IMG/VR virus record: IMGVR_UViG_3300030333_002795
Location: 1-51,430 of that record
Source: a virus
Strand: one strand, 5' to 3'
Length of the DNA: 51,430 nucleotides
The notes beneath the pieces are model-generated. The model ran no database searches, was not told where the DNA came from, and saw only the letters and a program-made list of their open reading frames with translations. A program made the translations under genes and the position numbers. Below, one piece after another: positions 8,801 to 43,200 of this stretch; the first letter of the stretch is position 1, and each line of letters begins with the position of its first letter.

Positions 8801-9235
8801 ATCTATAACTGTTGCAACAATAGTGTCGGGAGCACCTACATCGTTTGGAACAATGGTCAATGTTTTACCAGTTGTTGGTGTTCCTGTAAACGTCACCGTT
8901 GCAGTTGCAGCTGCTGTGCTGTAAGCAATATCATGCGTGTTACCGTCACTGTCAGCGTAAAAGACTGAACCCCCAGCAACTATAAGAACCTCTCTAAGCA
9001 GTGAAGTATCTCTGTACACTTCATACTCAAGCAAGCACTGTACGTTTAGGTCATTGTTTACACCCATATCTGCAACTGCTGCAAAGCCTTGCCTAGTTCC
9101 AATCCTTCGCCTGTGCTCAAAGTTATCCATTGGGACAACGTTCATCATAGACGTACTAAACCCATCTGCTCCGTGCTGATGATTCAAGCTGTCGGAGTAA
9201 CCGTTAATCGGGATGGGCATCTGGGCTGTTGGCAT
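5834..9235 (-). CDS. Tail-tube nozzle-like protein with inserted beta domains, copy A
   Basis: 1133 residues. The first ~58 residues match the 846-residue protein at 48248-50788 at 46 of 58 positions, including PIPINGY, NHQHGA, EHRRR and GTRQGFAA. An N-terminal INGY...NVLP...RRRxGT layout is typical of phage nozzle proteins of the T7 gp12 type, where the phrase marks the start of the beta-propeller. Further shared blocks are VGVMGPDAWCQGPEK, FNIQRGQS and a C-terminal RFRxRKRxSDFQVEITASGT. Copy A is 287 residues longer. At least two Ser/Thr/Gly/Asp-rich beta-type blocks (about residues 100-232 and 620-790) are absent from copy B, which points to domain insertion. Its start overlaps the stop of the fibre gene by one base. 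It probably forms the tail tip and so contributes to host recognition. Confidence 0.75.
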   Translation of the reverse strand: MPTAQMPIPINGYSDSLNHQHGADGFSTSMMNVVPMDNFEHRRRIGTRQGFAAVADMGVNNDLNVQCLLEYEVYRDTSLLREVLIVAGGSVFYADSDGNTHDIAYSTAAATATVTFTGTPTTGKTLTIVPNDVGAPDTIVATVIDTGSTTTGDDDTPSFLNTGADTDAHATALATCLDGNAHLNASASGSVVTITQEDAGSASSTGNTDITGNLDNATITNFSGAAYAAGQNRIHPSDTVRAAMYGTVVYLVTGRQYYKIDLSATTPVIEEWTNYNGTGGMPTDAYGNKCNLITRFGARIVMAGISSSPNNWFMSKIGDAEDWTPTALSSSDAQAGDSSTEFGVLGEPITAIFPFGEAGLMMASKGTLTYLTADPVTTGAQMIRMSNGVGVMGPDAWCQGPEKSCYVASGDGVYLIQPNQFNIQRGQSITTGRLDGFFSGVNSSEVDLHLAYDPPRGTILLFVNREADPLNVVHYMHHIATQSWWTFKVSDPRMDVVRTTCLYSPISGEREGLWIGCKSGRITTQPNSGVLAYDGGSHTSPLKSASNNSPDDAKETFESRIAWAPINAGLSNQRLLMTELDVLLDRNEVTATDGITPAGPTLNLYGAEMAQILSGVSGDIKVTQTELVIDGGVATLEEGSSSPYSPSAIIDTGNADAKAYAVITVADGDAIDHGIAELQYITITSTAGVTKTYVVTDTNAGGVATGTVLAEGSDYGSGTIPADHALIGGIAVGINTTGSVSNAYTYLVQLKAAINHANGHNAGGSSVFTFVDPAAGAAANGAQSLRIIQAVDGRGGNRPITETIASSVTIPSVFVGGQSITAVGTEYRPAIQATISLHDSSISNLNNETIVLNDLASGTSAVTLTFDSSLGVNASTASSIGCADANGNLLAIMKGVKKSIDLNYQAGLLNIKTEDPYLDSSEAKMVLRMSDNWNGLDLLTGLTLTGTAIDSNDIQDETFALEAGANWKQFINGGSAADVTGTYTLNDSASSDSMKKWSRSNSYTVRMGGNTSASESSNFDGRWAVFGAGDNAPPLYMADEETASLSLSTWNSVEILPSNFTASSVIVDPTQDATTKRLLQSWTLNRGRNNRFRVRKRESDFQVEITASGTMWVLEDLAISLEQGGPYRSVIAS

Positions 9236-10491
9236 TATTGGGTCCTCAACCCGTAAACTTCAAAGGTCCCAGTAATGTTGTAACCACCATCGTTTTCTAT
9301 TCTAAAGTTCTTAATATGATTACCGTTTTTATCTTTAATATTAATAGCATTGGTTGTAGTAAGCTCTCTGTTTACTGTTACTGAGTGAACCAAATACTCA
9401 CCTTTGTTATCGTGTTCACTACAACCTGAAATTACAACTCTGGCAGAAGACCGTTGACCAGAGCTGCCCGAACCCATTTTGGCAGCACTTATTGAAAAAA
9501 AACTACTTCCGCCAGTAGACCAGCTGGTACCTCTTTTTACGTTTAGCCTTAAAATGTCTTGATAACTATGGCTCATTAAACCAGACAACACTATTAAAAA
9601 CTCACTATAAATATCTGAAGCGTCAGAGTCACACATGGACGCAGTTGCACTTGTAGCATTAGACCAAGAACCCGAACCTAATAATTCATAACCTATGTAG
9701 TGACTGTCATCTACATACTTTTTAGTAGCTACGCCTTGATTAGTAGTCGGGTCAACAACATTGATAATCTTCTTAGTGTTCATATCCAATTCGCCATGGA
9801 TATTATGTTCAGCTGTTCCAGTCATACTAAGAACACCGCTGCCTGTGATATTAACCGCAGACACGTTTGATGTTGTCGTAATTACACCAGAAGCATCTAT
9901 GTTCGCACACTTTGCAATGTCACCATCATTGTCAACTCTAAAGGTACTGTTGTTATTATTGTAATGATGAATAACAGCGTCAGTAGCATTGGCACTACCT
10001 GATGAGCGTGTCATCAACTGACCATAATTAGTTTCGGCTTTAATTTGAACGCCTGTTGTTGTGCCCGTGTCTGCACCGATTAACACCTTCTTGCCAGCGT
10101 CTATTGTTGTGTCACCCTTGACAGCAACGTTGCCACTCTTGTCTACTGAAAAGACAAGTGTTGTTGAGTCATGTGCTTCAACGCCAAGGATTTTCGCGTT
10201 TTGTTCTTCAAGACCTTTAAGCAAGAAGGTAGTAACGTCTCCAGAACCGCCAGTGCCGCCTACAGGTTGATTTGCTGCGGAACTAGAGTTTTCAAGAATG
10301 TTTGCTACGCCAGACATTACAGGTGTTGCATGTGCAAGGTCCTTCCAAACAGAAGTGCCGTTGCCCACCTTTAAGCCTACGGTATTATTATTAGAGTCTA
10401 ATACTAACCCAATCTCGCCTTGCGCAAGTATGGGGTTTGCAAGGTTCCAGTCACCTTCTGTATCTCTTCGTACTTGTATTTGTGTTGCCAT
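9235..10491 (-). CDS. Tail fibre / receptor-binding-like protein, copy A
   Basis: 418 residues. The N-terminus (IQVRRDTEGDW, then ILAQGEIGLVLD and VKVG/LKVGNGTS) is the short module found at the start of many phage fibre or tropism-determinant proteins, used to attach the fibre to the virion. The middle is a run of beta-rich, Asn/Thr/Gly/Asp-rich segments with the recurrent pattern FxVDxxGDI (FSVDKSGNV, FRVDNDGDI), typical of trimeric fibre shafts, plus an Asn-rich turn (HHYNNNNS). The C-terminus (TFEVYGLRTQ) resembles the ends of other beta-jelly fibre tips. It lies between the adaptor and nozzle genes. A second gene of this kind runs off the window at 50788-51430, next to nozzle B. Receptor specificity cannot be read from sequence. 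Confidence 0.7.
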   Translation of the reverse strand: MATQIQVRRDTEGDWNLANPILAQGEIGLVLDSNNNTVGLKVGNGTSVWKDLAHATPVMSGVANILENSSSAANQPVGGTGGSGDVTTFLLKGLEEQNAKILGVEAHDSTTLVFSVDKSGNVAVKGDTTIDAGKKVLIGADTGTTTGVQIKAETNYGQLMTRSSGSANATDAVIHHYNNNNSTFRVDNDGDIAKCANIDASGVITTTSNVSAVNITGSGVLSMTGTAEHNIHGELDMNTKKIINVVDPTTNQGVATKKYVDDSHYIGYELLGSGSWSNATSATASMCDSDASDIYSEFLIVLSGLMSHSYQDILRLNVKRGTSWSTGGSSFFSISAAKMGSGSSGQRSSARVVISGCSEHDNKGEYLVHSVTVNRELTTTNAINIKDKNGNHIKNFRIENDGGYNITGTFEVYGLRTQ

Positions 10492-23660: not shown

Positions 23661-24343
23661 GCGATGTTTCTACATGGATGCCTTTATATGGCGGTGATTT
23701 TCTTGTTGCTACGATTGGATGGCCCGCAGACGCTGTTGGTCATTACATAAAGATACTACTGCTTCAGTGGGACAGGGGTGGACTCCCTAAAGACATATCT
23801 GAATGGGAGTCCCTGTCGCCTGGTGTAAGTCAGCACGAGTCGTTGCTGTTGCCAAAGTTCCCAATAGGGGCAGATGGCAAGAGATACAACCACAGACTTG
23901 AAGATGAAAAGCACAAGGCAGTTAAACTGCGTACTCAAAGAGCAGAGGCAGGAAGGAAGGGCGCAGCAAAGCGATGGGAGAACGACAATGTCCTACCACC
24001 AAAGACTGCTGTCTCTACACCCTCATCAATACACCGAGGTTCTAAGGAGGCAAACTTGGCTTGGGAGTTTGTTCCCACCCTTAGAAAAACTGGAAAGCGT
24101 AAGTTCTTAAATCTCTGGGAAACACTTGTGCTGCGTCAGGGTCTTGATCACGAAAAGGTAATTAAGTCGTTTGAAGACTACTACAACTCGCCAAAAGGTA
24201 AAGGTGAGTACGCACGTGGACCGATACGTTTATTGGAGGAAGCCGTTTGGGAGGACGACCCTAAGAGTTGGGGGGAAAACAACACGGAAAGCATAAGTCA
24301 CTTAGACGCTATATATGCGGAGCAACAAAATGGAGAATTATAA
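23657..24343 (+). CDS. YdaU/DUF1376-like replication protein
   Basis: 228 residues from the ATG at 23657, which overlaps the preceding stop by four bases. It starts MPLYGGDFLVATIGWPADAVGHYIKILLLQWDRGGLPKDISE, close to the DUF1376 (YdaU) phrase 'yP.y.gD.l..t..l...e.GaY..Ll...w..ggl..d'. A basic helix (AEAGRKGAAKRWEN) and a second globular part (about residues 130-220) follow. YdaU-type proteins lie in phage replication operons and are often treated as primosome or initiation factors. The gene ends TAA, whose last base is the A of the ATG of the overlapping +1 frame at 24343. Confidence 0.7.
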   Translation: MSDVSTWMPLYGGDFLVATIGWPADAVGHYIKILLLQWDRGGLPKDISEWESLSPGVSQHESLLLPKFPIGADGKRYNHRLEDEKHKAVKLRTQRAEAGRKGAAKRWENDNVLPPKTAVSTPSSIHRGSKEANLAWEFVPTLRKTGKRKFLNLWETLVLRQGLDHEKVIKSFEDYYNSPKGKGEYARGPIRLLEEAVWEDDPKSWGENNTESISHLDAIYAEQQNGEL

Positions 24344-24986
24344 TGTGGATACTACCCAAATCAATCATGTCTCACTATGTGCAGGATATGGAGGAATCGA
24401 CCTCGGAATTAGAAGAGTTCTGCCAACAGTGCGAACAATCGCTTTTGTGGAGATCGAAGCCTTCTGTGCAGCGAACTTGGTTGAAAAGATGCAAGACGGT
24501 TTTCTGGATGAAGCACCTATCTGGACAAACCTTAAAACCTTCCCAGGAAAAGATTTTCTCGGTCGAGTGGACATCCTCAGCGGAGGTTTTCCTTGCCAAC
24601 CGTTCAGCTCAGCAGGACTCAGAAAAGGTACTGAAGATTCTAGACACCTGTGGCCATTTATCGAAGAAATTATTTCCGACTGCGAACCAAGACTCCTCTT
24701 CTTCGAGAATGTCTCAGGGATTGTTTCATCAAAACTTGCAGGAGAGCCAGACACATCGGTTCTCAAACATGTCTTGGAGCGAATGGAAGAAATGGGTTAC
24801 AGAGCAGAAGCAGGACTATTCAGTGCGGAAGAATGCGGCTATCCACATAGGCGACAGCGAGTCTTTATCGCAGGTGTTCGCAACACCAACAACAACTGCA
24901 AATCAACTGTCACCATCCATGATGAAACACCCAGACTGTCGGAACATAGTGGGGAGTTGGCCAACACCAATGGCATCGGACACTGA
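24330..24986 (+). CDS. Cytosine-C5 DNA methyltransferase, N-terminal part (motifs I-VIII)
   Basis: 218 residues. I chose the ATG at 24330 for its GGAG ribosome-binding site at 24319; 24315 is also possible. It carries motif I VSLCAGYGGIDLG (14-26), motif IV GGFPCQPFS with the catalytic Cys89, motif VI FENVSG (125-130) and motif VIII HRRQRVFI (173-180). The frame then stops at 24984. Motifs IX-X, needed for target recognition and fold closure, are missing here and reappear in the same frame at 25275-25970 after about 250 bases of stops. A second, fully open frame covers the whole region. The gene either needs a frameshift or read-through to be whole, or encodes the larger subunit of a split enzyme. 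The target is probably a short C-containing sequence; GGCC is worth testing. Confidence 0.75.
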   Translation: MENYNVDTTQINHVSLCAGYGGIDLGIRRVLPTVRTIAFVEIEAFCAANLVEKMQDGFLDEAPIWTNLKTFPGKDFLGRVDILSGGFPCQPFSSAGLRKGTEDSRHLWPFIEEIISDCEPRLLFFENVSGIVSSKLAGEPDTSVLKHVLERMEEMGYRAEAGLFSAEECGYPHRRQRVFIAGVRNTNNNCKSTVTIHDETPRLSEHSGELANTNGIGH

Positions 24987-25902
24987 AGGAGGCGTAGTCT
25001 ACGATGTACAACTTAGTAACGGATGTTTTTACAGAGTTAACAAGAAGGGTGAGCGTTGGAGCGTCAAGTTAAGAGACGCTGTTAATTGGCCAACGCCATC
25101 GGTTCACCATGTTGTAATGGGGAACAACGAAGAGCCGATAGAGAATTACGAAAAGCGTGTAAAAGATTATGAAGATGGAAAGACAAAGGGCAAGCCAGGC
25201 AAGAGTTTAGGCGTAGCGGTAAGAATGAATAACTGGCCAACGCCAGATGCAACAAATGTAGGAGACGGTGTACCATGGGAAAAGACAAAGAAACAACTAG
25301 ACGAGAGAAGGGCGAGGGTAAAAGAGGATGTGAAGAAGGGCAAGACCAAGCAGGGCAGCGGGAGGTCTCCCAACCTTGCGATGACGGTGCAGAAGCCAGA
25401 GAACTGGGCGACACCACAAGCAAGCGATCACATAGAGGGAGCGAGGACGGATGTGAACAGCAACCAGAAATGTTTGGGTCGAGACCTGAATCAACTAGAG
25501 AACTGGGCGACACCAAACACGATGGATCATCTGCCAGCGGGAATAAGTCAGTCGTACAAGGAAAGTGTGGGCGAGAGTCCATTGAGGGGCAGAAAGAAAT
25601 CATCGAACCTGAGAGAGCAAGTGAATTGGCCAACTCCTCTTGCGAGGGACTACAGGGGAGCGTTACCCCCGAATCAACTGACGAGGAAGGATGGGAAGAG
25701 CAGGATGGACCAACTGCCCAATGCTGTTGCCCATACCCCGCAAGACCAGGCGAACCACAAAGATGGTGGGAAGCCCCAAGAACAATCTCAAAAGACGAAA
25801 CAAGTATTATCACCCCTGTGGGTTGCCCAGATTATGGGGTTGAACCCTCTATGGTGCTTAATCAGAGAACCGAATCACTCAGAGCACTCGGAAACGGAGT
25901 AG
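24343..25902 (+). CDS. Long +1-frame ORF overlapping the methyltransferase gene (WPTP-repeat protein)
   Basis: 519 residues in the +1 frame, open throughout. The start ATG at 24343 overlaps the YdaU-like stop by one base (TAATG), with GGAG upstream, which is a good coupled start. The first ~210 residues (MWILPKSIMSHY, LLWRSKPS, LSGQTLKPSQEKIF) lie over the methyltransferase part; the rest has six W(P/A)TP units at 24956-25630 (GSWPTPMASD, NWPTPSVHH, NWPTPDATN, NWATPQASD, NWATPNTMD, NWPTPLARD) and a C-terminal LSPLWVAQIMGLNPLW. The C-terminal phrase resembles 'LNPxWVExLMGFPxGW' seen near the end of some Dcm-type enzymes. I recall phage proteins of this general kind. It may be a real second product, or the frame into which the methyltransferase is recoded; I cannot tell which. 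Confidence 0.45.
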   Translation: MWILPKSIMSHYVQDMEESTSELEEFCQQCEQSLLWRSKPSVQRTWLKRCKTVFWMKHLSGQTLKPSQEKIFSVEWTSSAEVFLANRSAQQDSEKVLKILDTCGHLSKKLFPTANQDSSSSRMSQGLFHQNLQESQTHRFSNMSWSEWKKWVTEQKQDYSVRKNAAIHIGDSESLSQVFATPTTTANQLSPSMMKHPDCRNIVGSWPTPMASDTEGGVVYDVQLSNGCFYRVNKKGERWSVKLRDAVNWPTPSVHHVVMGNNEEPIENYEKRVKDYEDGKTKGKPGKSLGVAVRMNNWPTPDATNVGDGVPWEKTKKQLDERRARVKEDVKKGKTKQGSGRSPNLAMTVQKPENWATPQASDHIEGARTDVNSNQKCLGRDLNQLENWATPNTMDHLPAGISQSYKESVGESPLRGRKKSSNLREQVNWPTPLARDYRGALPPNQLTRKDGKSRMDQLPNAVAHTPQDQANHKDGGKPQEQSQKTKQVLSPLWVAQIMGLNPLWCLIREPNHSEHSETE

Positions 25903-25970
25903 TGCCCTCAACCGCAGAGAGAGCCTTTATTATTCTTATGGGCAGATTAGGAGCGCAGCATGACAAATGA
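25275..25970 (+). CDS. Methyltransferase C-terminal part (motifs IX/X region), frame 0
   Basis: 231 residues from the ATG at 25275, with a weak GGAG ten bases upstream. It is in the same frame as the N-terminal part but separated by several stops between 24984 and 25237. Its last 36 residues carry RTESLRALGNGVVPSTAERAF, the motif X phrase (ALGNxVVPxxA) that closes the methyltransferase fold; upstream is the hydrophilic variable part with ELGDT, ELGDTKHDGSS and ELANSS units, the usual filler between motif VIII and the target-recognition part of phage C5 enzymes. It may be a separate small subunit, the 3' end of a recoded gene, or a decaying remnant. The following gene overlaps it by 11 bases. 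Confidence 0.5.
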   Translation: MGKDKETTRREKGEGKRGCEEGQDQAGQREVSQPCDDGAEARELGDTTSKRSHRGSEDGCEQQPEMFGSRPESTRELGDTKHDGSSASGNKSVVQGKCGRESIEGQKEIIEPERASELANSSCEGLQGSVTPESTDEEGWEEQDGPTAQCCCPYPARPGEPQRWWEAPRTISKDETSIITPVGCPDYGVEPSMVLNQRTESLRALGNGVVPSTAERAFIILMGRLGAQHDK

Positions 25971-28287: not shown

Positions 28288-31200
28288 CTAGTCTTCCTCT
28301 ATAGACTTGTAGTAATCTCGGATAGTTTCCCAAGCCCATGTTTCTTCTTCAGTCAACTCACGGAGTCTTCTGATTTTTCTAACTGCCTTCTCAGTCTCTT
28401 CTAGTTGTGGGTTAGCAAGACCAGATATTTTTCTACCAAGTCTTTGTGGGGCTACAGTTGGATCACCAACTACTTGCCTGCCAGTTTCTGTCAACCTTTG
28501 AAGAGCGTCAAATATAACATCAGGGTCTACCTCTTCTTTTTCTGTCTCAGAATACAACCTTGCTATTTGTCTAAATGAATCTTCAGTTGGGTCTGCCCAA
28601 AGTTGTGGCAAGCCAACTTCATACCCACGACCTATTGACAAGAGCCAAGAGATGGCAATGCCAGGATAACCAAGTTTACTTAAAGACTCTTCTAAAAGTT
28701 TCCACTTTGCTGCTTCTTCGGTGGAGATTTTCTGAGCCTCTTCAACGAAGTATTGCATTTGCTCTTCAATGCTACCTTCGACATCGGGTTCATCGTCAGC
28801 AAACATTCTAGCAACCAAGGACATCATAGTGCCCCATCCCAAAGACCAACCAGCACCACCTATCACTACCGAATTTATAGCACCAGAAAGTTTCCTTGCC
28901 TTCTGTTTAGCATTTCCGTACCGAATGGCTCTCCATATTGTGTTACCTGTAGTGGCGGGGTCGCTAGAGAACGGAAACCAAAGTCTAGTCCTAGTACCAG
29001 TAGATGCGTCATTAGCATCGGTGACTGTGGCATCCAGTGCCGAGGATGTGTTCTGAGTAGTCCTTATAACACGCTCAGTTTCCTTCCCTGCCATTTCAAT
29101 CAACTTTCTGCCCGAAACCCCCATTCTTTCCAACTTGCTCTTACAGGCAACATATGCGACTGTAGCGACTATGTTGTCAAAATACTGTAGAGCATGGACA
29201 TTGTCGGGTGCACTCTGAAGAATACGCCAAGCCTCTTTACCCAATCTCATCGTCTCGGCCATGTTTCCTTCAGAAGTTGCCTTACTAATTAAAGCCAGCG
29301 TCTTAAGCATTTGCTCCATAGACTTGACGAACTTGTCTTTGTCGGCAATCTTTGTCCCACGCTGCTCTTCAGACTGCAACTGCCTTCGCATTGCACCTGA
29401 GTTGGCTCGTGCCCACAAGTATCCATTTTGGTGTGCCTCTTCAATTATTGTCTGCATGTCTTGCAATGAAAGCATACCTATCAACACTTGGCTTATTGGA
29501 AGTTCTATAGTGAGGTTTGCCAAACCGCCAAATAAAACCCGACCATATGTCCCTGGGTTTAATGTTAGGTAGGCACTACCTAGTGATCCACTGACAGTTT
29601 CTCCAAGTCCACCTTTTGTAATACGCCTAGTCATTCCAGAGCCATGCATGATTCTGTTTGACAGTGCTTTTTGGAACTCTGCACCTAGGTGTTTGTTAAT
29701 CGCTTCTCTAACGTCAGGGTGTTCTATGATTGCCACGGCATCTCTAACTGGAATAGCCATGTGTGTTAGTTTTAACGATGCATCTGCGTTGTTGATAAAG
29801 TCTTCAACAAAGCCACCTAGGATAACTTCGCCACCGCCTTCAGTTCTCTCTTTAGTAAACCCTGCCATGTCTAAGAAGTTCTTAGTCATTGCACTCAATT
29901 CTAAGTTCATCTCTTTAGTTTGAACAGAAACTTGTCTAGACCTAGGCTCATAACCCTCTACAAACTTTGGCTCATATCCATGGATGTAATAAAACGATGC
30001 AAACGCTTGAGGTCTAAGCACGGTCTCTCTGTACTCTTTAGCACTGTCGATAAAGTTTCGGAGAGAAGCAGGCAGTTTGCTCAAAGCACGACTTACCTCT
30101 TCTCGTGTAACACCTTTTATGGATTCAGCCATTCTGCCATCGTGTAGTTTAAGTCCCACACCCTCACGAACAACTTCTCCCATTGAATTAACTTCATCAA
30201 CTACTCGGTCTATTGTTTCTTGATCAAAGGCATACAACTTCATAAGTTGGTCAAGAGTTATTTCAATCTCTGAACCGCCAAGAACCACATTAAACACTTC
30301 TGTAGAAACACTGATTCCAGATATACCAGTTGCATCAACAAGATTGTCTAGGTCTTTGTAGCCTGCATCTTTGGCAAGGTTTTCTAAAAGGGTAAATGTT
30401 TCTTTAAGACCAAGCATTGCTGCTGATTCTGCATCACATAATGCGTGGTGTAAAACTTCAGCAACTTCATTTACATCATCTGGACTTTCAGCTTTTGACA
30501 TCAAATCTGAAATCAAAGTCAGTGTCTGTTTAGAGCCAAACCAAGTGCTACCAATTCTTGAAGGTCTATCTTTAAACTCATCACCAGGTCTTGGTTTCAT
30601 TTTAGATAACGCAAGAATAATTTTAGACGAGGTGCTTGCTAGTCTTTCGGCTCTTTCCCCTCTTGCTGTTCTCCAATCTTCCTTAGCCAACTTAACAAGC
30701 GACTTAGCCTCATTCATGGCTTCAGCAATCACACGTGCTTTAGTCACTAAATCAGTAACAGATAGTACGTTTTGCTTAAACATTCTCTTTGTGCCTGGTT
30801 GATACGCAGTTGTTTCAGCAACATTAAGAAGAGGTTCTAACTCTTTAGTCCTAGTGTCATGTGACATTTTCATTTTACGAAGACGCTTTGCTTGTTTACG
30901 CATAGCTCTGACAGATTCTCTGTACTCGTTTTCAGACGCTATTCGCACAACTAACTCTGCTATTTCTTGCAACCTGTGAAGAGTTTTGGCTCGAGCTAGC
31001 CTTGTAGCAAGACGACCTCTCAATCTTTGAGGTAGGGCATTTACTAGTTTAATAGCCTGCTCTCTAACTTCCTCTCTATTTGCTGCTGCTAACTTAAGTC
31101 TTTCAATCCTGTTCTCTAGTTGTTCTCGCAGTTTAGCAAGGCGTTCTCGACCTCTGGCTTTTTCTAACTCTCTTGCTTCACGCTTTGCTTCTTGCAACTC

Positions 31201-34200
31201 TCGGTTACTAGGCTTGCGTGAGTCTAAAACTCCTAGCATCCTTGTGTAAGGTCTGTCTGTTGGGAAACGAACTAAACCTTCTTGGTCTGAAACACCAAAA
31301 TAACTAACAAGTTTAGAGTTTTCAATAACACTTTGGTTTGCAGGCAATTCTTTTCGTGAAAACAATACCGAGTCTTCTAATTCATCAAGGGCAAATCTTA
31401 AAGATATGTCATCGCCTTTTTGATACTGCCTTACTAAAACGCCTTTTGATTCAAGTTTCTTTATAAGATCAGGGCTAGTTTCATAAGGCACAACAGCAGC
31501 CATCAAACCACCCTCTCCAAAAGGAAAGGCTTTAATAGGCTTTGCCTCTGTGTACGGCTGAGGTCTTGCACTTTCTTTAGCCAACACATCTAAAATTTCA
31601 TAAAGAGGTGCTGTATCAAAACCTTCTTCGCCAACAGTCTCTACGAAAGACTCACGAACACTAGGTGTATTTAAGTGGTCAAACACGCTCACGCCTCTTG
31701 GCGGTTCGTTCGATAATCCCCATTTAACTATTGAATCTAAAATCCCTTCGGCATGCTTTTCTCTAAGATTTCTTTCGTCTAACAGTCTGTATATGTCAGC
31801 TCTTTCAGTGTTTACCCAACGGTCTTTTTGCATTGGGTCATTTTCTAAGTACAAGCCTATAAGACCATTGACTCTTTGTATTGGCTCGTGCCTGCTCCAA
31901 TCTCGTGGCAAGCCCATTGAATCTGGCTCTGTTTGTTTAGCAACAACATCTTCTAATTGCTGCATGTCGTATATACGATTTGAAAACACCGAAGTCAAAG
32001 CATAGAAATCTGCTGAAGCCATAGGGTAGTTGTATGGTGCTTCTGCACCCCTTAAAAGAGGGCGGCCCTCAGCATCTACATCTGCCTGTCGAATCATTTC
32101 TTTTAACAAGGCTTCGCTATTTGCGGATTCTGTCCAGTGGCGTGAGTGCCAGTCATCGGGAATCCTAGGACTAAACATATCTCTGTCATAGAAATTGTTA
32201 CCTAGTTCATCTTTAACAACTTGCGGATCCCACACCAATGCAATGTCGCCAAAATAATCATATGACTCTCGTATAGCAAACTCTTGTTTATCAAAGACAG
32301 ATATTGAAGGCATAACATAAGCATCTGATTCAACTAAAAGTTCTAAAAGATACTCTTGCGTTTTAGTAACAGCAATCTTCCTCTTACTGCCATCAGTCCT
32401 CTTACGAGATTCTAATGTGTTCATGTCTTCTTCAAAAATTTCAGCAAGGGTTCGCTTTTTAGCGGCTTCACGTATTAATGGGAACATGAAAGATTTAGTT
32501 TCATTTGCAATCCAAGCGTCAACTCCGTTTTTAGAGCCAGGGTTGTTTAAATCTAATCCTTCTAAAGTCTTAACAACCTTGTTTCCTGTTGGAGAAGTAA
32601 AGTAAATCTTTGCATTTGACTTTGTATTGTTAGGGCGTTGTCGAACAGCAAAGCCAATAATTTCATCTTTGTGCATTCCCTTTAAAGGGTCTTTGTATTT
32701 CAAAATGTACAAACACTTATTGCCTTTTGTCAGGTCGTATCTGTCCCCATTACCAACAACAGTTTTGTGTATTAATTTAGATATGCTTTCTTGTAGACCT
32801 TCGTCAGACCTGTTGCCTACGGCTTCTTGAATAGCAGCCAGTGGAACTTTACCCCTAGTACCCCAACCTTTCTTCTTTCTAACAGTGTTAGTAAACGCAC
32901 GTTTAGTCACAACAGGTGTCTGTGCTTCCTCAATGCTAGGCATTACTTCTGATTCAGGTTTAGCACCAGTGCCTTTCAATGGGAATCCGCCCCACCTAAG
33001 CATGGCAATTTTTTGCGGATGCGAAAGGTCGTCAACATAAACTCTAGGATTGTGTTTAGATGCGTAGTTAGGACCAGGCATATTAGAAAACGCACCGCCA
33101 TACAAAGCATCTTGTCCTTCTGACCGATCTTGTACGCTAAAGTAATAATCCGCATCTGCTTCAGAAACTTCTGCATAACTAGTGTCTTTAAACGCTTCTG
33201 GAGTAAAAGGACTTCCCCAAGCAGCCATAATTGGATTTATCATTTGTGAAGTTAACCACTCGGCTGAACTAGACCTTTTCATCACATCATTTATAGGCGT
33301 ATCAGCATAAGACTGCAAAGCACCCCAAACTTTGCGGTTAACATCTTTAAACCCTTTATGAAATGACAGGCCTTCTCCTCGCAGCATGCCATGCATAGTA
33401 TGTTCGCTTTCCACAAACGCAGTTAGCAATCCATAGCCACTCCAAACTTTATTGTTCGTCTCATTTTTCTTAATAGAGTTCCGAAGACTATTTGTCGCTT
33501 TATGCAACACAAGTTTTTGCCTTGCTCTTGTGGCCATCATTTCATTATCATATGGTCCGTAGGAAGCAACAGGTTCGCCCTCAACATAATCAGCGTTGTA
33601 AACATCTACCCACCAGTTGTTGAGTCTACCGTCAGGTCTTTCTACAACTATCTTAATGTTCTCAATATTTTCTAAACCATGATCAGCACTAAGAATCAGT
33701 GCAGTTGATATGTCTTCTAATAAAACTTCTGCTTCTATTGGTTCATTTATAATTGAATCTAGCAGTTTTTCAAAAACAGCTTTTGTATCTGGGAGGTTCG
33801 TATCAACACCACTAAACAGATATGATTCGTTCCATGAGTCAGTAAGTGCATCAAAAATGCCTTCTGCTCTTGTAAAGTCTTGAAGGTATAGGTTTTCTCC
33901 AAGTTGATGGACTGCTTTTGCAAGGCGCAGCAAAGATTCAGAGACTGTCATTTTGTTGCCACCAGGCAATAATTCATCTAACAAATCTGTAACAAGGTCA
34001 TAGTTTGTCGGTTTAATATCATCTGTTGGTTGGTCTGGAATTACAGTTTGCTCTCCAGTTGGGCCTTGTATTTTAGTTCCACCCAACTCTCTTTTGGTTT
34101 GCTCTAATTCAAAAGCCAAATCTCCATAAGCCATTACCACATCTTTGAAATGGGGAATTAACACTTCTTCAAAATAAGCACGGTATGCACCCACTGAATT

Positions 34201-37200
34201 GTTTAATAAGAAATCGTCATGCGGGAAATTCTCAAGAATGCCTGTGATTACTCGAACTGCCTGTGCAGCTTGTGCGTAACCTGGCGTACCACCCTCTTCT
34301 TTCTCTTGCTCATATGCAGTATCACCAACAATCATTAGTTTGACCTGCAATTCTTGCATATCTTGAACCACACTCTTTCTAGATTCAAGTGCATTCTTGT
34401 TCCAAAGTGGAACACCTTTAGTCATGCCATCTATCATTTTCTGCGTAATTGTCAGACCAAGCATAAACTGTTTGTTTTCTGACGAATGTAGTGATTCATT
34501 TGCTGCTTCTGCTTTTGCAGCAATAGAATTTATATCGCCTAAAGAATGTGTTTCAAAGTCGCCAAACGCTTCTCGTAAAATTCTGAAATGACGGTTCATT
34601 TCGTTAACGCCTACTCTATGCGTGTCTGTAACATCTCTTTCAAATTGACCAAATATTTCTTCATTCCAATGTTCAACAGCCATGCCATCATTAATATCAA
34701 TGTGAGGCCTAGGGTTTACTATTAATGCATGCAAGCCTTCAGGTTTATTCTTAGACAGTGTTTTAAATATGTTATAGCCGCTTTGTTGTAGCAACATTCC
34801 GCTGCGCGTTATACCTTCGTCTGTATAATTATAATCAACAAGAGAAGACACGGACACTTTGGTGTTTTGCAAATCACTAGGATTAGGTGCAAGTGCACTA
34901 ATATATTGCAAGACGTTGTTTGTAAGATAAAGTTCGTTTAAATTACTTTTTAAGACGTAATCTAATTTATCAAGCGGATGCATGAGGTCAGCCATTGCCT
35001 CAGCAACATCACGCAGGTATCTTTGTACATCATCAAAACTAAACGGATCATCTCCATGTTCTGCTAGGTTTAACTCACCCCATTGGTATGAAAGTTTACG
35101 AAGAGACCATGTATTCATTATTTCTTGTTTAACAAAATCTGACCAATTATGACGTCTTAAAGCCTTGTCTAAAATTGCAGAAGTAATATTAAGATTATCA
35201 CGGTCACCTTCTTCAAGTTCGTATTGCGAAGGGTCTGCATTACTTAACCATTGTTGTTGAGCAGGATTTCTCCACGCATCTCCAAAGAAACTAATAACAC
35301 TGTCATCTAAAACATCTCTGTTGCCTTGTTTTTTCAACAACTTCTTAATGGCTTTTCTTACTTCTCTTAAACCTTCTTTAGAAACCATGTCTGCGTCTTC
35401 ATAACTAGTGTCAACTACATCTGCTGCATTATCAAACATAGTCCACCAGGCTTGTAGCATCTCTTCTTGACTGTAGTTTTCTAATTGAAGGGATTTAAGT
35501 GTGTTTCTAAATACATTAACATCATCTCTTGGTAAAGTTAATGAAGAGAGAGCCTTTCCTTCTTTTAAAAGTTTATTAACAGTGTCTCTTAGTTCAAACG
35601 CATCTGTAAGCATAAGAACGCTTAATACAGATTTTTCTAAAACATCAGACAAAGTCATCTCTGTCATTGAGTCTGAAACATCAACTACTTCCAGTGTAAG
35701 TGACGGACTGTCCATTCTTATCTTTGGTATCTTTCCATCAACCAAAACACTTGGGTCTAACTTTTTGGCAATGTTTGTGTACACCTTTTCTATTGTTTTG
35801 TAGACACTACTGTTTCCAATGTTTTGATATTGGTTCATTAACTCTGTGTCTGGGAACAACAACATGGTCTGATCATTGTTTATAGCGTGAATTAACCTTT
35901 GTTTTGCAACAAGACCTATCCACTCATCAGACTGCTTACCAGTAGGCTTGGTAACAAATGGACCACCTACCAACCCTTGTGTTGAAAAATGTTCTCGCCT
36001 AGGTTCATAAACGGCTACATTTGTCTGCCACCCTGCTGCGGTGTTAACCATTTCTTCTATTATTGGTAATATTTGATATGTAACATTTGCATCAAGATTC
36101 ATTCCTCGCTCGTTTGTAACATTAAAATTATCTAGTTCCATATTAGGATGGAGACCTTCTTGAACTTCTTCCCACACTGTTAGTGGTGCATCGTAGTCAT
36201 CAGGGTCATAAGCATTGACACTACTACTTGCTTCATCATCAACCATGTTTACGGTTTCTTTTATTAGAGCCGCTAAATAGTCAAGAGGTTGTTCTTGAGC
36301 TGCTTTATAATCTTTGTACAAAGTCGAACTCTTGTCAGTTGCATGGGCAAGCCCTATTTGTGCAACAAGAAGTTTTTCGGCTAAAGTTAATCCAGTTTCT
36401 TTTTCCGCAATGTCAGATTCCTCTGAGTCAACATTTGAGAAATCAGCAACATCAGGTTTAGCACCGTAAACTAAACGTGCTCTGTCTGCATCATCAAGTC
36501 TAGCCATCATCATATCATGAGCCGAACTAAACAGTGCATATGGATTTTTAGTAAATGGAGCATTAAAAGGCTTAATAACATAAATATTAGACGGCAATTC
36601 CGATGGGAAACTTTGCACTATCAAATTACTTGTGTCGTTTTTATCTGCTGATACCCTACCTTTGCCATCTGTTAGTAATAAATTGCCACCTCCAAGTGAA
36701 ATTTCTAATCCTTTAAAAGAAAGAAGGTCTTGAAGAGTTAGTGGTGGTGCTCCTTCTGCGGAAAAAAGCAAATCAGACACAGAAAGAATGTCAGTTATGT
36801 CCTGACTTTGTCTAAGTTCGTATTCTGTTGTGTCATACCATTGTTGAACTTCCTCTTCAGTTGGTATTTGAACAAATTCTCCTATAGGCGTAACATATAG
36901 TTGAGTTTCAGGATCATAGACAGATGTCATTTCAACGTTTTCAGTGGTATTGTTCCGAGCCTCGCCCAAGTTAATTGTATAATTTGTCGATGCAACAGGG
37001 TAATAGGAGGCCAATTCCTCTTGTATACCTACAAGTTTTTTATAAAGTTCAGCGTCTCCTTGATTATCAAATGTTGCATTGAAAAATTCGGCAGCAGCAT
37101 AAGGCACATCAGTTGTGTGCCCAGTTGGCGTATACACTGGATCAAGCAACTCGTTGAAATAATAGGTCTCCCAATTAAAAAGTATATTGGCAAACTCTAG

Positions 37201-40200
37201 AAGTTCTTCATCGGTAGGCGATATACTACGCCACATGCTAGGATCTAAATTTTCAAAATGCAATCTTAAATCATTAGCAAGACTTTCATAGTTTGGAGTA
37301 ACCGCTGTTACTTCACCATTTGCTATTGCCTCGTCAAGTTGTGGGTGTTCATCTATTTGATTTTGAAGTTCGGCTAAAACTGAATCAATACGCTCTTGGT
37401 AAAACTGCGGTTCAGTTTGCAATCTTGCAAGAAGAGATTCGTAGGCCTCGCCCTGCCTACTTCTTGTTTGACTTTCAGCCAATTGTTCTAAAGTAACACT
37501 TTCATAATCGGCATCTGCGTCTTTTGCTTCAATTAAAGTCCTGTAAAAGACCCATGCTAAACGATTTGGGTCTGTCTTAGTATTAGATATTCGAGATTTA
37601 AATCCAGCAAGTATTGAAAGAACGCCTGTGCCAACATTAACGTAATTATCTTCTTGCACTTCAGAATCTGTCAAACTAGATATAAGTTTAAGATTAGATG
37701 CGTCTTCGGTAAGAGGGCCGAATGCAGTCATGTATCTCATACCGTTTTCTATTTCACCCTGGTTTATTGTCAACAATTCCCAGTTATTTCGACCACGATC
37801 ATGTACAAACTTCTTTCGTAAACTAGTTGTTTCAGCACGAGGCTTTGTTTGTATACGATTCATTAAAGTATCAAAAGACATTTCTTCTTGTCTTTTAATA
37901 TATGGAGTTCGTGGAATTAAATTAGGGTTTTGCAAAAATGATTTAAGAGCATCTCTTACTTCTGTAGAAAATGCTTTGCCTGGAACAACATTAACTCTAT
38001 GCTCTTGTGAGAATGCATTTAAAATTGGCAAATCGTTCCAAGTACCGTAGAGTGCCATATGTTCAAATGCACTTGCCTCTATAGCATCTACAACTTTGTC
38101 TATATTTTCTGGTTTAATAGCATGGTTGTAGTATTCTTTTATTGCATCAAAATAATTTATATGGGACTGAGACATCAGGTCGTCAGGGCGATAATTCAGG
38201 TTACTAAGGATGTGATGTAACGTTTGTTCAACAAGCAAATAATCTGACCACGCTGGGCTTTTGTGTTTCCAAGGCTCAACCCAACCCGCAGGCGTAACGC
38301 TATTTAGCGGCTGAACAGATTGTCCAAGGGTAATTGGACCTATGTTTGGCAAACCAGGCAGAAACGACACCTTTTCTAAAAGGATTGTGTTGTAATTAAT
38401 GAAATCCAAACTTCCGCCTAGAGTTTTTGATGCCAATCCAAAGTCTACAATTTCTTTAAGTTCTGTATCAGATAAATCTTTTAGCCAATTGTTATAATCA
38501 GACACATGCTCCGCATATTCTCTAAATGCATCTTCATAAGATTGAGTTTCTGAAAATTTTACTGGTCCCTCTCTACCGATTATTTTAGCCCAGTCTGATT
38601 GCCACTCCCAAATGGCATACGCTGTTTCTTGTGGATTTAACGGATGAGGAATAACAAAATCACGGCCATGTGCAAGTTGATTTGCTCCTTGACTTCTAAA
38701 GTGCGACCTTTCAAAATGTCCCGCCCCAGTTTGAGGGTTGTAAGCACCCTCCTTAACCCACTGCATAACCCACTGTAAATGACCAATGTCAGAAGTAGGT
38801 TTAGCAGGATAATTTAAATACTTGGGAGAAACCGATGCAGCCCCTGTTCTTGGATTCATGTATTCGTGTTCTGAAGGCGGAATGTTTCTCTCTGCTACTC
38901 TAACGTTTTGAACTGCATTTATAGCAAGGTCAACTTCAAAAGCACCGTCACCTTGATTATTTAAAAACTCTTGCAATCCTGACCAGAAGACTTCTTCTTT
39001 GCTAACGGCATTCTTTTCTAAATATTTAAGCAACTCCTTAGCCGTCATCTTCTTTTGAGTTGCCTCTTTTAATACAGGAACTATTTTACTAAAGAGATTT
39101 CCGTCTAGCACCAAGTCTACATCTCTGACTTTGTATTCGTCTCTGTTAAGTTTTCTAGACTCTAACACATTAGTTTGTGCCCATTTGCTAGAAGGCATGC
39201 CCTCTATTTTCATGTCTTCGACTTTAGACAATCTGTTTGACATTACCGCAGCAGCAGTTGCTTTGTTGTCTTCGTTTATTTGGGCATAATTGTAAAGTTG
39301 CCACCCTGTACTTTTTGCGAGTGAAAGTGCGAGTCGCCCTTGTTCAGCTTCTGATAGTTTCCTAATTTCGCTAACAAATTTGCTGGGCGTTCGGAGGAGT
39401 TGCTCACGCTTTGGTTTTGTTGGGGCGATCTTGTCAACGACATCTCGTCCTTTTTGGGTGAGGTCTTGGGCATACCACTTGCTTGATTTCTTGGCATCTT
39501 CTTTTACCTTTTTGTTTCTAAGGCTTTTCGCCTTTTCGTTTGCATTAGATACATTTGTTATTTGCAGGTCTTGGTCTTTAATTAGGGGTTTAAGTTTCAA
39601 CTCGCCTAACGCCCTGTGTATAGTTGTTATAGCACTGTCAGTAATTCCATCGCTACTAGTTGGAATAATAGTAATTGATGTTCCTGTAGCCAGTGGTTTT
39701 GACTGTATGTTTAAGTTGTGCTTTCCTGCTTCTTCAGCAATAACAGATATATCAGACAGTCGTAATTCTTGTGTTGGGAAAAACAACTCTATTGAGGCAG
39801 TTCCTTGACCGACAGGGACTTCATGCACTAGTTGTGCATTGTCTAAACCTATCATTGAAGCAGCGTAAACAAGTACATCGTTCTGTTCTTCTTTACTCAG
39901 GTTGCCTAAGAACATGGTTGTAGTAGGTTGTATAATTCCACCGTTAGTAGAGAACATCCCATGTATTGCATCTTCTCGTTTAGCAGACTTGCCATATCTA
40001 CTTATCCCCATGACATCGCCTGCTAGAATCTCTTTAACTGACGCTGTAGCATTAAAAGTCTTGTTAGCAATAATTGCCAAACTCTTATCAAAAACATAAT
40101 GCGATTGGGTAGTGTTTCTCTTAGGACCTGTTTCTACCATCTCCAACCCGAATAACTCTCTTAGGATATTCTTGTTAGTTGGATAGGTTTGCTTACTCAT

Positions 40201-43200
40201 TATTGTTTGCAAATACGATTGTTGAGCCGAGCGCAGCGTGTCAACTACTTTTAGAACTTGTCGTCTAGTAGCAAGCGGAATATCTCTAGACAAAGCAAGA
40301 GCCATCGGAGAACTAAGTTTTACTACCTGTTTATTAAGCAGTGGTACAGTTGGTGCAAACCTAGGAGTTCGCCTCATTTTAGAAGCAATCTGTGTAACGC
40401 CAGAAACATCCATTTCAGCCGTCAAGTCTTTAATGTTGACGTAAAGTGTTCCATCTGAACTTTCTTTAACTGGCAACCCTGCGTCTTTCCACTCTTCAAA
40501 TACCAACTCTAACTCGTCAGAGAACGTGCCTGTGTTGTCTTGTCTGTTTGACCACAAAACTGCTTGCAGTTGCCATGGTGTCCAAGGCGTTGTTACAAGG
40601 TCTTTCTCAGAATCTGACATGCCCCGCTTGTCTACATTACTCATTGATTTGTTAACCATGCTGGCTAATTCAACATGAAATCTCGAAACCATTTCGTACA
40701 CTAACGGATTAGAGTATGACTCTGCCTTCATCCCATAAATGCCAGCCATAATTACATCGTTGGTTGACATTGGAACTTTTGACTCTAAACCCATTGTCAA
40801 CAAGAATGTGTCGGCAAATGATCCAGTCTTAAATCTAGAGCCTTCGTCTACTTTGCCTTCAAAAGCCTTTTGGATGCCAACCATTTTAGATTGACCTATA
40901 GCAACGGCCGAAGGTACGCCTAATTTGTAATCAATAAATACTGAAACTGCTTGACGCAAGTTGTCTGGAACTTTAGTCCTTGGAGATGTTGCACTAATTA
41001 GGTTGGCAAACAATACAGCGTCTTCTTCGGTAGCACCTCTAAACCTGTTTCTAAAATCATTGCCTAATGTTTCATACCAAAACCTAACAGACGATGGCAT
41101 GTTAAGCGAGTCGTTTAAGAACGATGCGTTAAGATTTAGACTGTCTGCATTCGACAAATCTAAGGCACGGTTAAACCTTGAGTCGCCCATTGCTTTTTGA
41201 GTGTTTTTAACTGCAAGGTCTATGTCTGCTTGAGTAAATTCAGGATATGCCACTGTTGATGGGGCTTCGTCTGACAACTTGTTATAAGAGCGACCTTTAG
41301 TTGATTTTGCTATTTTGCCTGGCTTGTATGGTAACTCTACTCCCCCCGAAAGTTCCTCTTGTGTAAATTGTGAACGTATGTCTTCTGTGTCTACATTAGA
41401 CAACACCTTCTTGTATCGTGAGTCTTTTTTGCCCCGCTCACCTGTGTCTTTGCGACTATCAAGTGCATCTAATCTTGATCTCATTGCTTGTGTTATTTCA
41501 TCGCCTAAACTAAACCCTCTGTCTGCAAATAACTCTTCTACAACATCAAAAAATTCTGTAGGATTAATACCCTCTAAACGCTCTAACATAGATGAAAAGT
41601 CTTCTGGACCTTCAGCATATGGCATAAAAATGCTAGGTCCGTGCTCATCAATTTCTTGATAATACGTTACTGTAGCAAGAGCTTCTTTTGTAGTAAATTC
41701 GTTTTCTAAAACATACGTTCTAGCGTCATTTACTAAAACGTCAAGATCCTCTTGATCCTGTGCGTAATCAGTTAATTCAAAGTAATCTTTTGCTAACTGT
41801 TCGTCAAATTCAGGTCTGCTGTCTGGCAACCCAAGTTGTTCTCTTCGTGAGTCTAGCGACTTGCCTTTTTTAACACCTTCAATTCGCTGCCGTTTTACTC
41901 TTTCGTATGCAGGAGTGCCCTTCTTAACTTTAACCGTCTTCCCTTTTACAAAAGTTGAAGACATTGCAAGACTTGCAGTATCAGCCTTAGATTTTACAAG
42001 TGCGTCATAAAGTGCGACTGCTGCCCTAGCGTTGCGACCTCCAAGACCTAATCTTGAGACAGTTCTCATAAATGAAGACTGTGTCATTGCAACGCCTTTT
42101 TCGACAGCAACAGCCATGCCTTCTAACTCAGCCCATATCAACACATCTTTCTTTTGTTCATTTGTTAATTCGACTTCTTTGCCAGCAGCATCTGTAAACA
42201 CGAAGTTTTCTGTTGTGCCACCTTGCTGTATATGCTGTGCAAACTGAACTAGAATCGCATCCTTGCCAGTAAGTGTGCCATCTTTTGCACCTCTTAATGC
42301 ATACTCAGCGGCTGAGAACAATATCTCCGCATCTCCGACAATGTCCTTTAATTCAGCGTAAACATCTGGATTAGTAAACTGAATAAAGTGTGTGGCTTCA
42401 TGCATGCCTGTTGCAACTAAATATGTGCTACTCGCATCTCCGTCAGCTTCAAGATAAATTATGCCTGGCGTTAGGGGATCATAGAAACCGTCTGGATTAT
42501 TTTCAGAACTCTCATACCAAACAACTTGTAAGCCTAAAGCATTTAGTGCTTTCTCTGCACTGCTCTGTGCTTCATTACGATTGCCTGCTGGGGTTAAATC
42601 TTCATCAACACCTTTGTTCTTAAGAGCAACATCGTAAGTATATGACTTTTGTTCAATCTCAACTCCACCTTCAGTTTCTGACCTAATTTCAACAGCCATG
42701 TCTGAAGCCAAACTAAGTTGTATTTCAAGATTGTTAAGTTGAAGTTTAACTTCTGCTGCTTTAGCAGTAAGTATATCTGCACCCTTGTCATCACCGTTAG
42801 ATTTTGCTGTTCTTGCATCTACAATTAAAGAGTGATATTTATACTGAGTTGCAGCATATTCAGATTGCCATTTGGCTATTGCCTCTTGTCTCTCAACATC
42901 CGACATTTTTTCAATTGATGCCGCAAGTTCAGGTGCGTGTTCTTTAAGGGCTTTAATCGGGTCGTATGTCGCCTCTTTCCAAATACCCTTTCCTCGTATA
43001 GCACGTTCAAAGTCGACCTGCGACAACTTCGATGAAGCCGCACCAACAGCCATACCAGGACCACCAAGGAAGATGCCCAAAGTAGCACCTTTAATACCCG
43101 CATCAATTAAGTCGGCCTCTCTTTCAGGATCTAGTTCTTTAATAGCAGCAGTTTGGAAATACTCAGCACCGATTTCTGAAACAGCTTCGCCAGATAAATC

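What the first reader, a model, noticed from the sequence alone, without database searches (positions are those of the whole stretch)
24330..25970. Overprinted or recoded C5-methyltransferase locus
Motifs I, IV, VI and VIII are in frame 0 (24330-24986), then frame 0 has many stops until 25237, then motif X reappears in the same frame (ALGNGVVP near 25900). Over the same DNA the +1 frame is open for 519 codons, starts with a coupled TAATG and GGAG, and ends with an LSPLWVAQIMG phrase like the one expected near motif IX-X. A +1 slip after motif VIII and a -1 slip before motif X would give one full enzyme. Alternatives are a naturally split enzyme (as M.AquI or M.EcoHK31I) or a real second protein printed over the enzyme.
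Basis: partly seen in the sequence, partly recalled or inferred. Interest (0 to 1): 0.85.

Follow-up and report, generated by a model that had tools for sequence, protein, structure and literature searches.

The report
DNA methylase split across overlapping frames
This phage encodes one DNA-methylating enzyme as separate pieces read from the same stretch of DNA in two overlapping reading frames, and relatives built the same way turn up across many phages and bacteria, where the second half is easily missed by gene annotation.

Summary
Frame 0 carries C5-methyltransferase motifs I-VIII (24330-24986), then eight stops, then motif X. The +1 frame is open for 519 codons. It is neither an error nor, most likely, a double frameshift. 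It is a split C5-methyltransferase: subunit alpha (frame 0) has motifs I-VIII and X; subunit beta (+1) has the target-recognition region and motif IX.

In 69 of 71 phage relatives with a continuous alpha, beta's frame has no stop across the gene (2 stops seen, 366 expected). Substitution patterns flip frame along the gene: alpha over I-VIII, beta over the recognition region and IX, alpha again at X. A motif-IX search found the same nesting in 212 of 223 classifiable loci in bacteria and viruses. Most close relatives start both frames at ATGTG.

The window is a rarer variant. Alpha's linker has stops at the neutral rate, and X sits on a third ORF (25275-25970) with its own AGGAG site; four other phage loci do the same. 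Beta's recognition region is a string of W-x-T-P modules shuffled between phages.

The kind is known (M.EcoHK31I, M.AquI). The three-ORF form, dual start, module array and breadth appear unreported in the held literature.

The parts
24330..24986 (+). alpha1: C5-methyltransferase catalytic part, motifs I-VIII (frame 0). Start ATG 24330; alternatives GTG 24345 (the ATGTG dual start used by relatives) and ATG 24315.
   Evidence: PF00145 E 5e-38, profile 2-171/324; phmmer hits M.HhaI 12-188; starts
24343..25902 (+). beta: +1-frame subunit, 519 aa, target-recognition region plus motif IX
   Evidence: phrog_1008 'DNA methyltransferase' E 5e-23; 30-47 homologues aligned; frame-of-selection test on relatives
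24332..24335 (+). GGAG, Shine-Dalgarno-like site 7 nt before beta ATG 24343; the ATG overlaps the TAA of the upstream gene
   Evidence: sequence; upstream contexts
24343..24347 (+). ATGTG dual start: ATG opens beta (MWILPK), GTG at 24345 is in frame with alpha (VDTT). In the window alpha also has ATG 24330.
   Evidence: 58 of 66 loci have ATGTG; in 41 the GTG is the only alpha ATG/GTG within -60..+30
24984..25232 (+). closed stretch of alpha frame: eight stop codons between motif VIII and alpha2
   Evidence: 8 observed vs 7.2 expected, neutral
24958..25806 (+). beta array of six W-[PA]-T-P modules (starts 24958, 25087, 25234, 25405, 25504, 25627), proposed target-recognition modules
   Evidence: module 4 is 79-85% identical to modules in L262, L335, L077, L038
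25807..25854 (+). motif IX in beta (LSPLWVAQIMGLNPLW; family consensus LNPxWVExLMGLPxGW)
   Evidence: hhalign to fused single-frame enzymes E 4e-7
25260..25264 (+). AGGAG, Shine-Dalgarno site 10 nt before ATG 25275 (alpha2)
   Evidence: background for ATGs in this region 4.7%
25275..25970 (+). alpha2: frame-0 ORF, 231 aa, carries motif X at its C-terminus; nested in beta
   Evidence: 0 alpha-frame stops vs 9.4 expected given beta's codons, p < 0.001; weak phrog_1008/phrog_363 motif-X matches
25872..25940 (+). motif X (ESLRALGNGVVPSTAERAFIILM) in frame 0

Best explanation
The locus encodes one C5-cytosine DNA methyltransferase as separate chains from two overlapping frames. Alpha1 (frame 0) supplies the AdoMet-binding and catalytic part (motifs I-VIII). 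Beta (+1) supplies the target-recognition region and motif IX. A third ORF, alpha2 (frame 0 again), supplies motif X. In most relatives alpha1 and alpha2 are one continuous chain, because alpha's frame is kept open straight through the DNA that codes for beta's recognition region. In the window that linker has been lost and X is started from its own ribosome-binding site. The chains assemble into one enzyme, presumably a phage modification methylase that protects its DNA from host restriction; no restriction nuclease was recognised among the neighbours scanned. Shown from sequence: frame usage by region, openness, conserved dual start, ribosome-binding sites. Inferred: translation, assembly, methylation, anti-restriction role.
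For: (1) +1 frame open over the alpha-defined region in 69/71 relatives, 2 stops vs 366 expected; no control ORF of 250 aa or more has an open +1 frame. (2) Substitution share by alpha codon position, 80-90% identity bin: head 28/17/55, recognition region 60/16/24, pre-X 68/11/21, X 25/6/69, neighbour genes 19/10/71: constraint flips to beta and back. (3) When X moves into the beta frame (5 loci), alpha's linker fills with stops at the neutral rate (43 vs 47 expected). (4) 212 of 223 motif-IX hits with a methyltransferase head have alpha open and IX in +1. (5) Single-frame fused relatives carry the same TP modules and IX between VIII and X, and a model of one matches M.HhaI along its length. 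(6) In window, L078, L081, L095/L096 and L097 the first ATG after the last alpha stop has a Shine-Dalgarno site vs 4.7% of ATGs in comparable DNA; the following alpha frame is stop-free (p <0.001, 0.013, 0.057, 0.020, 0.010).
Against: No expression or activity data. The AlphaFold2 model of beta is mostly low confidence (mean pLDDT 52) and has no fold match, so its target-recognition role rests on homology to fused enzymes, which is significant only around motif IX. The window's beta motif IX is degenerate at its end (LNPLW where relatives have LPxGWT). The interrupted-alpha loci other than the window are related to each other, so they are not fully independent. Alpha2 in the window starts 205 residues before X, longer than in the others (52-103).
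Confidence: 0.8

Rival explanations
1. Double programmed frameshift: ribosomes slip +1 after motif VIII and -1 before X, making one fused enzyme.
For: The order of functional segments (frame 0, +1, frame 0) is what such slips would join. Fused single-frame enzymes exist.
Against: Beta has a conserved own start and is open upstream of the supposed slip site across the whole catalytic region. Continuous alpha frames through the linker in 69/71 relatives would be unnecessary. X has its own ribosome-binding site where alpha is interrupted. No obvious slippery heptamer seen between IX and X in the window.
Confidence: 0.06
2. Two-chain enzyme as in relatives; alpha's linker was lost recently in the window, X is untranslated and decaying, and the enzyme works without X or is dying.
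For: No close relative of the window was found to show that the state is old. Alpha2's 205-residue stretch before X is long and repetitive.
Against: 0 alpha-frame stops vs 9.4 expected after 25275, with AGGAG before the ATG; X sequence intact. The same layout in L078, L081, L095-L097, whose betas differ by about half (L078 vs L081 47% identical), with X conserved.
Confidence: 0.1
3. Beta is an unrelated protein overprinted on the methylase (for example a regulator or anti-restriction protein), not the target-recognition half.
For: Beta's N-terminal part has no match in Pfam and no PDB sequence match. Low-confidence model.
Against: Beta's C-terminus matches motif IX of fused enzymes; beta is the constrained frame exactly where alpha is not; X can be fused to either chain; annotated split genes in Mycobacterium phage Achebe have the same division.
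Confidence: 0.06
4. Chance open frame or sequencing error.
For: Purine-rich codon bias lowers +1 stops: only 3.2 were expected over alpha1 in the window.
Against: Family-wide openness and the frame flip; eight stops in the closed stretch; window beta modules are up to about 85% identical to modules elsewhere.
Confidence: 0.01

Closest known systems
M.EcoHK31I (two-polypeptide C5 methyltransferase)
   Same: Larger subunit has motifs I-VIII and X, the smaller has motif IX; both needed (PMC3404938; Lee et al. 1995 cited there). From memory, the small subunit is encoded inside the large one's gene in another frame, as here.
   Different: PMC3404938 places M.EcoHK31I's predicted target-recognition domain in the large subunit; here selection places it in beta. 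In the window the large subunit is itself cut, X being on a third ORF.
M.AquI (split C5 methyltransferase)
   Same: Alpha with motifs I-VIII, C-terminal part on a second chain (PMC3404938). Five census loci, Gordonia phage GordTnk2 and Mycobacterium phage Achebe have this division with overlapping frames.
   Different: In M.AquI motif X is on the small subunit together with IX; in the window X is in frame 0.
Single-chain actinophage C5 methylases (e.g. Mycobacterium phage Rita gp76)
   Same: Same parts in order: I-VIII, several L-P-T-P modules, APAFSEWMMGWPAGW (IX), GNGVVP (X)
   Different: All in one frame
Multispecific Bacillus phage C5 methylases (M.SPRI, M.phi3TI; from memory)
   Same: Several consecutive recognition modules in the variable region of a phage methylase
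   Different: W-x-T-P modules here are of a different type by eye, lie on a separate subunit and are shuffled between phages; specificity untested

Membership tests
C5-cytosine DNA methyltransferase (PF00145 / TIGR00675) | motifs I, IV (PCQ), VI (ENV), VIII in order | tested here: met
   (PF00145 2-171)
C5-cytosine DNA methyltransferase (PF00145 / TIGR00675) | target-recognition region and motif IX | tested here: met
   on beta, +1 frame; hhalign to fused enzymes E 4e-7 at IX. Comparison with one canonical enzyme aligns IX to IX but is not significant
C5-cytosine DNA methyltransferase (PF00145 / TIGR00675) | motif X | tested here: met
   25872-25940, frame 0, on alpha2
C5-cytosine DNA methyltransferase (PF00145 / TIGR00675) | methylates cytosine C5 | not testable with these tools
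   needs enzyme assay
M.EcoHK31I type | two chains, I-VIII + X on alpha, IX on beta | tested here: inconclusive
   met in relatives; in the window X is on a separate ORF
M.EcoHK31I type | beta nested in alpha's gene in another frame | tested here: met
   window and relatives; that M.EcoHK31I itself is nested is from memory (the 1995 paper is not held)
M.EcoHK31I type | sequence homology to M.EcoHK31I chains | not testable with these tools
   no labelled M.EcoHK31I sequence found in the collections used
M.AquI type | X on the same chain as IX | tested here: not met
   window X is in frame 0, IX in +1
Programmed frameshift fusion | slippery site between segments, only downstream frame constrained | tested here: not met
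   by-eye inspection of the IX-X stretch only; +1 open also upstream of VIII

The most novel reading that the evidence does not exclude
A naturally three-ORF C5 methyltransferase: catalytic part, recognition part and motif X on separate chains from mutually nested genes in alternating frames, with the recognition chain carrying a shuffled array of exchangeable modules that makes it multispecific. It is the far end of a widespread family of nested alpha/beta methylases.
Probability: 0.45. Interest if true: 0.82.

Novelty: new variant of a known kind. Interest (0 to 1): 0.74.

Why it matters
Fully nested same-strand genes that both code for parts of one enzyme are generally regarded as rare. Here they appear to be the normal layout of a whole branch of C5 methylases in phages and bacteria (212 of 223 classifiable hits of one motif-IX pattern). 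Annotation often keeps one frame: in the E. coli relative only one CDS is annotated, and two phage records annotate only the beta frame. A methylase annotated from alpha alone would be missing its recognition half. The window shows what happens when dual coding is relaxed: stops return at the neutral rate and the last motif gets its own start. Beta's module arrays offer a direct way to test how phages change methylation specificity.

Tried and rejected
Close relatives of beta by peptide patterns: none, because the module array varies. Solved-structure search with beta: nothing meaningful. Fold of beta: low confidence, no Foldseek match. Beta profile against one canonical Streptococcus phage methylase: IX aligned to IX but not significant. 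Double frameshift considered and set aside (see rivals). First openness test was partly circular because the region was bounded by beta's own stops; it was redone on alpha-defined regions. First classification of the census by a strict motif pattern left 83 loci unassigned; redone with a profile of alpha heads. L116's single alpha stop is left as possible error or pseudogene. The 1995 M.EcoHK31I paper is not held. Paper searches found no report of the widespread nesting in the held library; subscription papers and REBASE were not searchable. The GeneTack survey of prokaryotic frame transitions does not mention cytosine methylases in its main text. The out-of-frame HNH insertion in ShiLan-type methylases (PMC11855218) is a different thing.

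Full report
OBSERVATION. The window is an IMG/VR virus record. Frame 0 from 24330 to 24986 matches PF00145 over its first half, the part with motifs I-VIII. The +1 frame is open from ATG 24343 to 25902. Frame 0 has eight stops between 24984 and 25232 and is then open to 25970, ending with motif X. ATG 24343 overlaps the TAA of the upstream gene, with GGAG seven bases before it.

RELATIVES. A search with the frame-0 protein gave 80 viral loci. Of these, 71 have a complete alpha (motif I to X in one frame). Over the alpha-defined region the +1 frame has no stop in 69 of the 71; in all 71 there are 2 stops, against 366 expected when synonymous codons are shuffled within each gene, and 1279 in the third frame. 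Among other ORFs of 250 aa or more in the same loci, none has an open +1 frame; those with an open +2 frame are the betas themselves. Annotated phages show the same. Paenibacillus phage Bloom has both nested genes annotated as cytosine methyltransferase. Synechococcus phage Ssp-JY39 and Acidovorax phage Alfacinha1 have only the beta frame annotated. The E. coli PT62 relative has a single CDS annotated.

WHICH FRAME IS SELECTED WHERE. In pairs of related loci aligned at DNA level, the share of substitutions at alpha codon positions 1/2/3 (80-90% identity bin) is 19/10/71 in neighbouring genes, 28/17/55 over motifs I-VIII, 60/16/24 over the recognition region, 68/11/21 just before X and 25/6/69 at X. 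Alpha position 1 is beta's third position. So alpha is the constrained protein at I-VIII and X, and beta is the constrained protein over the recognition region and IX. For the window's own beta modules against their best relatives, substitution rates at beta positions 1/2/3 are 0.33/0.27/0.61.

DUAL START. In 58 of 66 loci where beta's start could be placed, the start is ATGTG: ATG opens beta (M-W-I-L-P-K) and the GTG two bases on opens alpha (V-D-T-T-K). In 41 of them that GTG is the only ATG or GTG available to alpha between -60 and +30. In the window alpha has an additional upstream ATG (24330). Enterobacterial and Pseudomonas relatives use an overlapping ATGAATG instead. In many other nested loci the first beta ATG with a ribosome-binding site lies inside alpha.

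BREADTH. Of 223 hits with a methyltransferase head upstream, 212 have alpha open throughout and IX in +1, with beta's ORF overlapping the head; 5 have X in the beta frame; 2 are fused in one frame; 4 are irregular. In the five with X on beta, alpha's linker carries 43 stops against 47 expected, i.e. alpha is no longer held open there. The need to reach X thus explains why alpha is kept open elsewhere. The pattern was written from nested members, so the proportion is not a census of all C5 methylases.

FUSED AND SPLIT FORMS. Mycobacterium phage Rita has I-VIII, L-P-T-P modules, IX and X in a single frame. The beta profile matches a profile of such enzymes at IX with E 4e-7. A model of one fused enzyme (pTM 0.73) matches M.HhaI over its length, which puts the modules and IX in the recognition-domain position; the modules themselves are modelled with low confidence. 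Mycobacterium phage Achebe has two annotated overlapping methylase genes, gp75 and gp74.

THE WINDOW'S VARIANT. In the window the linker has 8 alpha-frame stops against 7.2 expected, but after 25275 there are 0 against 9.4 (p < 0.001). ATG 25275 is preceded by AGGAG at 10 bases. L078, L081, L095 (same as L096) and L097 share the layout, and in each the first ATG after the last stop has its own site (GAGAGGAG, AAGGAG, GAGGAGG, AAGGAG at 7-10 bases). In alpha-continuous loci 26 of 551 ATGs (4.7%) in the corresponding region have one, and 1 of 70 in alpha's frame. The most economical reading is a third ORF, alpha2, that delivers X. The four others are related to one another, so they count as fewer than four independent cases.

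MODULES. Between VIII and IX beta is a string of modules, mostly 28-60 residues, each starting W-x-T-P. Clustering gives recurring types in different orders: L009 C P D G, L033 C T N D P E G, L037 C N I K B G, L031 D F D B G. The window has six; its fourth is 79-85% identical to modules in L262, L335, L077 and L038, which lie in different arrays. This resembles the consecutive recognition modules of multispecific Bacillus phage methylases (from memory); specificity is untested.

FUNCTION. The neighbours are early phage genes: exonuclease VIII, Sak-like annealing protein, primosomal protein, RusA-like resolvase. No restriction nuclease was recognised among the neighbours scanned. A role in protecting phage DNA from restriction is inferred from this setting.

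LIMITS. Everything here is sequence evidence. Translation of beta and alpha2, assembly and methylation are not shown. M.EcoHK31I's sequence was not at hand, and its nested gene arrangement is cited from memory; its motif distribution is from PMC3404938, which places the predicted recognition domain in the large subunit, unlike here.

Noticed in passing
window 9235-10491 (-): Protein with a Pfam Mtd_N domain (major tropism determinant N-terminal domain, E 7e-10); whether a diversity-generating retroelement is present was not checked.
   Followed up: no
window 28288-44676 (-): One ORF of 5,462 codons; its C-terminal 2,570 residues have no Pfam match.
   Followed up: no
L061, L045 (beta frames): Beta frame runs well past alpha (627-642 aa) with further TP modules; L061 carries a second motif-IX-like copy (VNPRWVEVLMGLPVGWT), possibly a duplicated recognition array.
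   Followed up: no
L085 (Gordonia phage Baddon) and L315: The frame switch between catalytic part, TP modules and motif IX lies at other points than in the main family, suggesting that frame assignment of the modules is evolutionarily labile.
   Followed up: partly
L116 (Thiotrichales MAG): Nested pair with a single stop in alpha just before motif VIII; sequencing error or pseudogene.
   Followed up: partly
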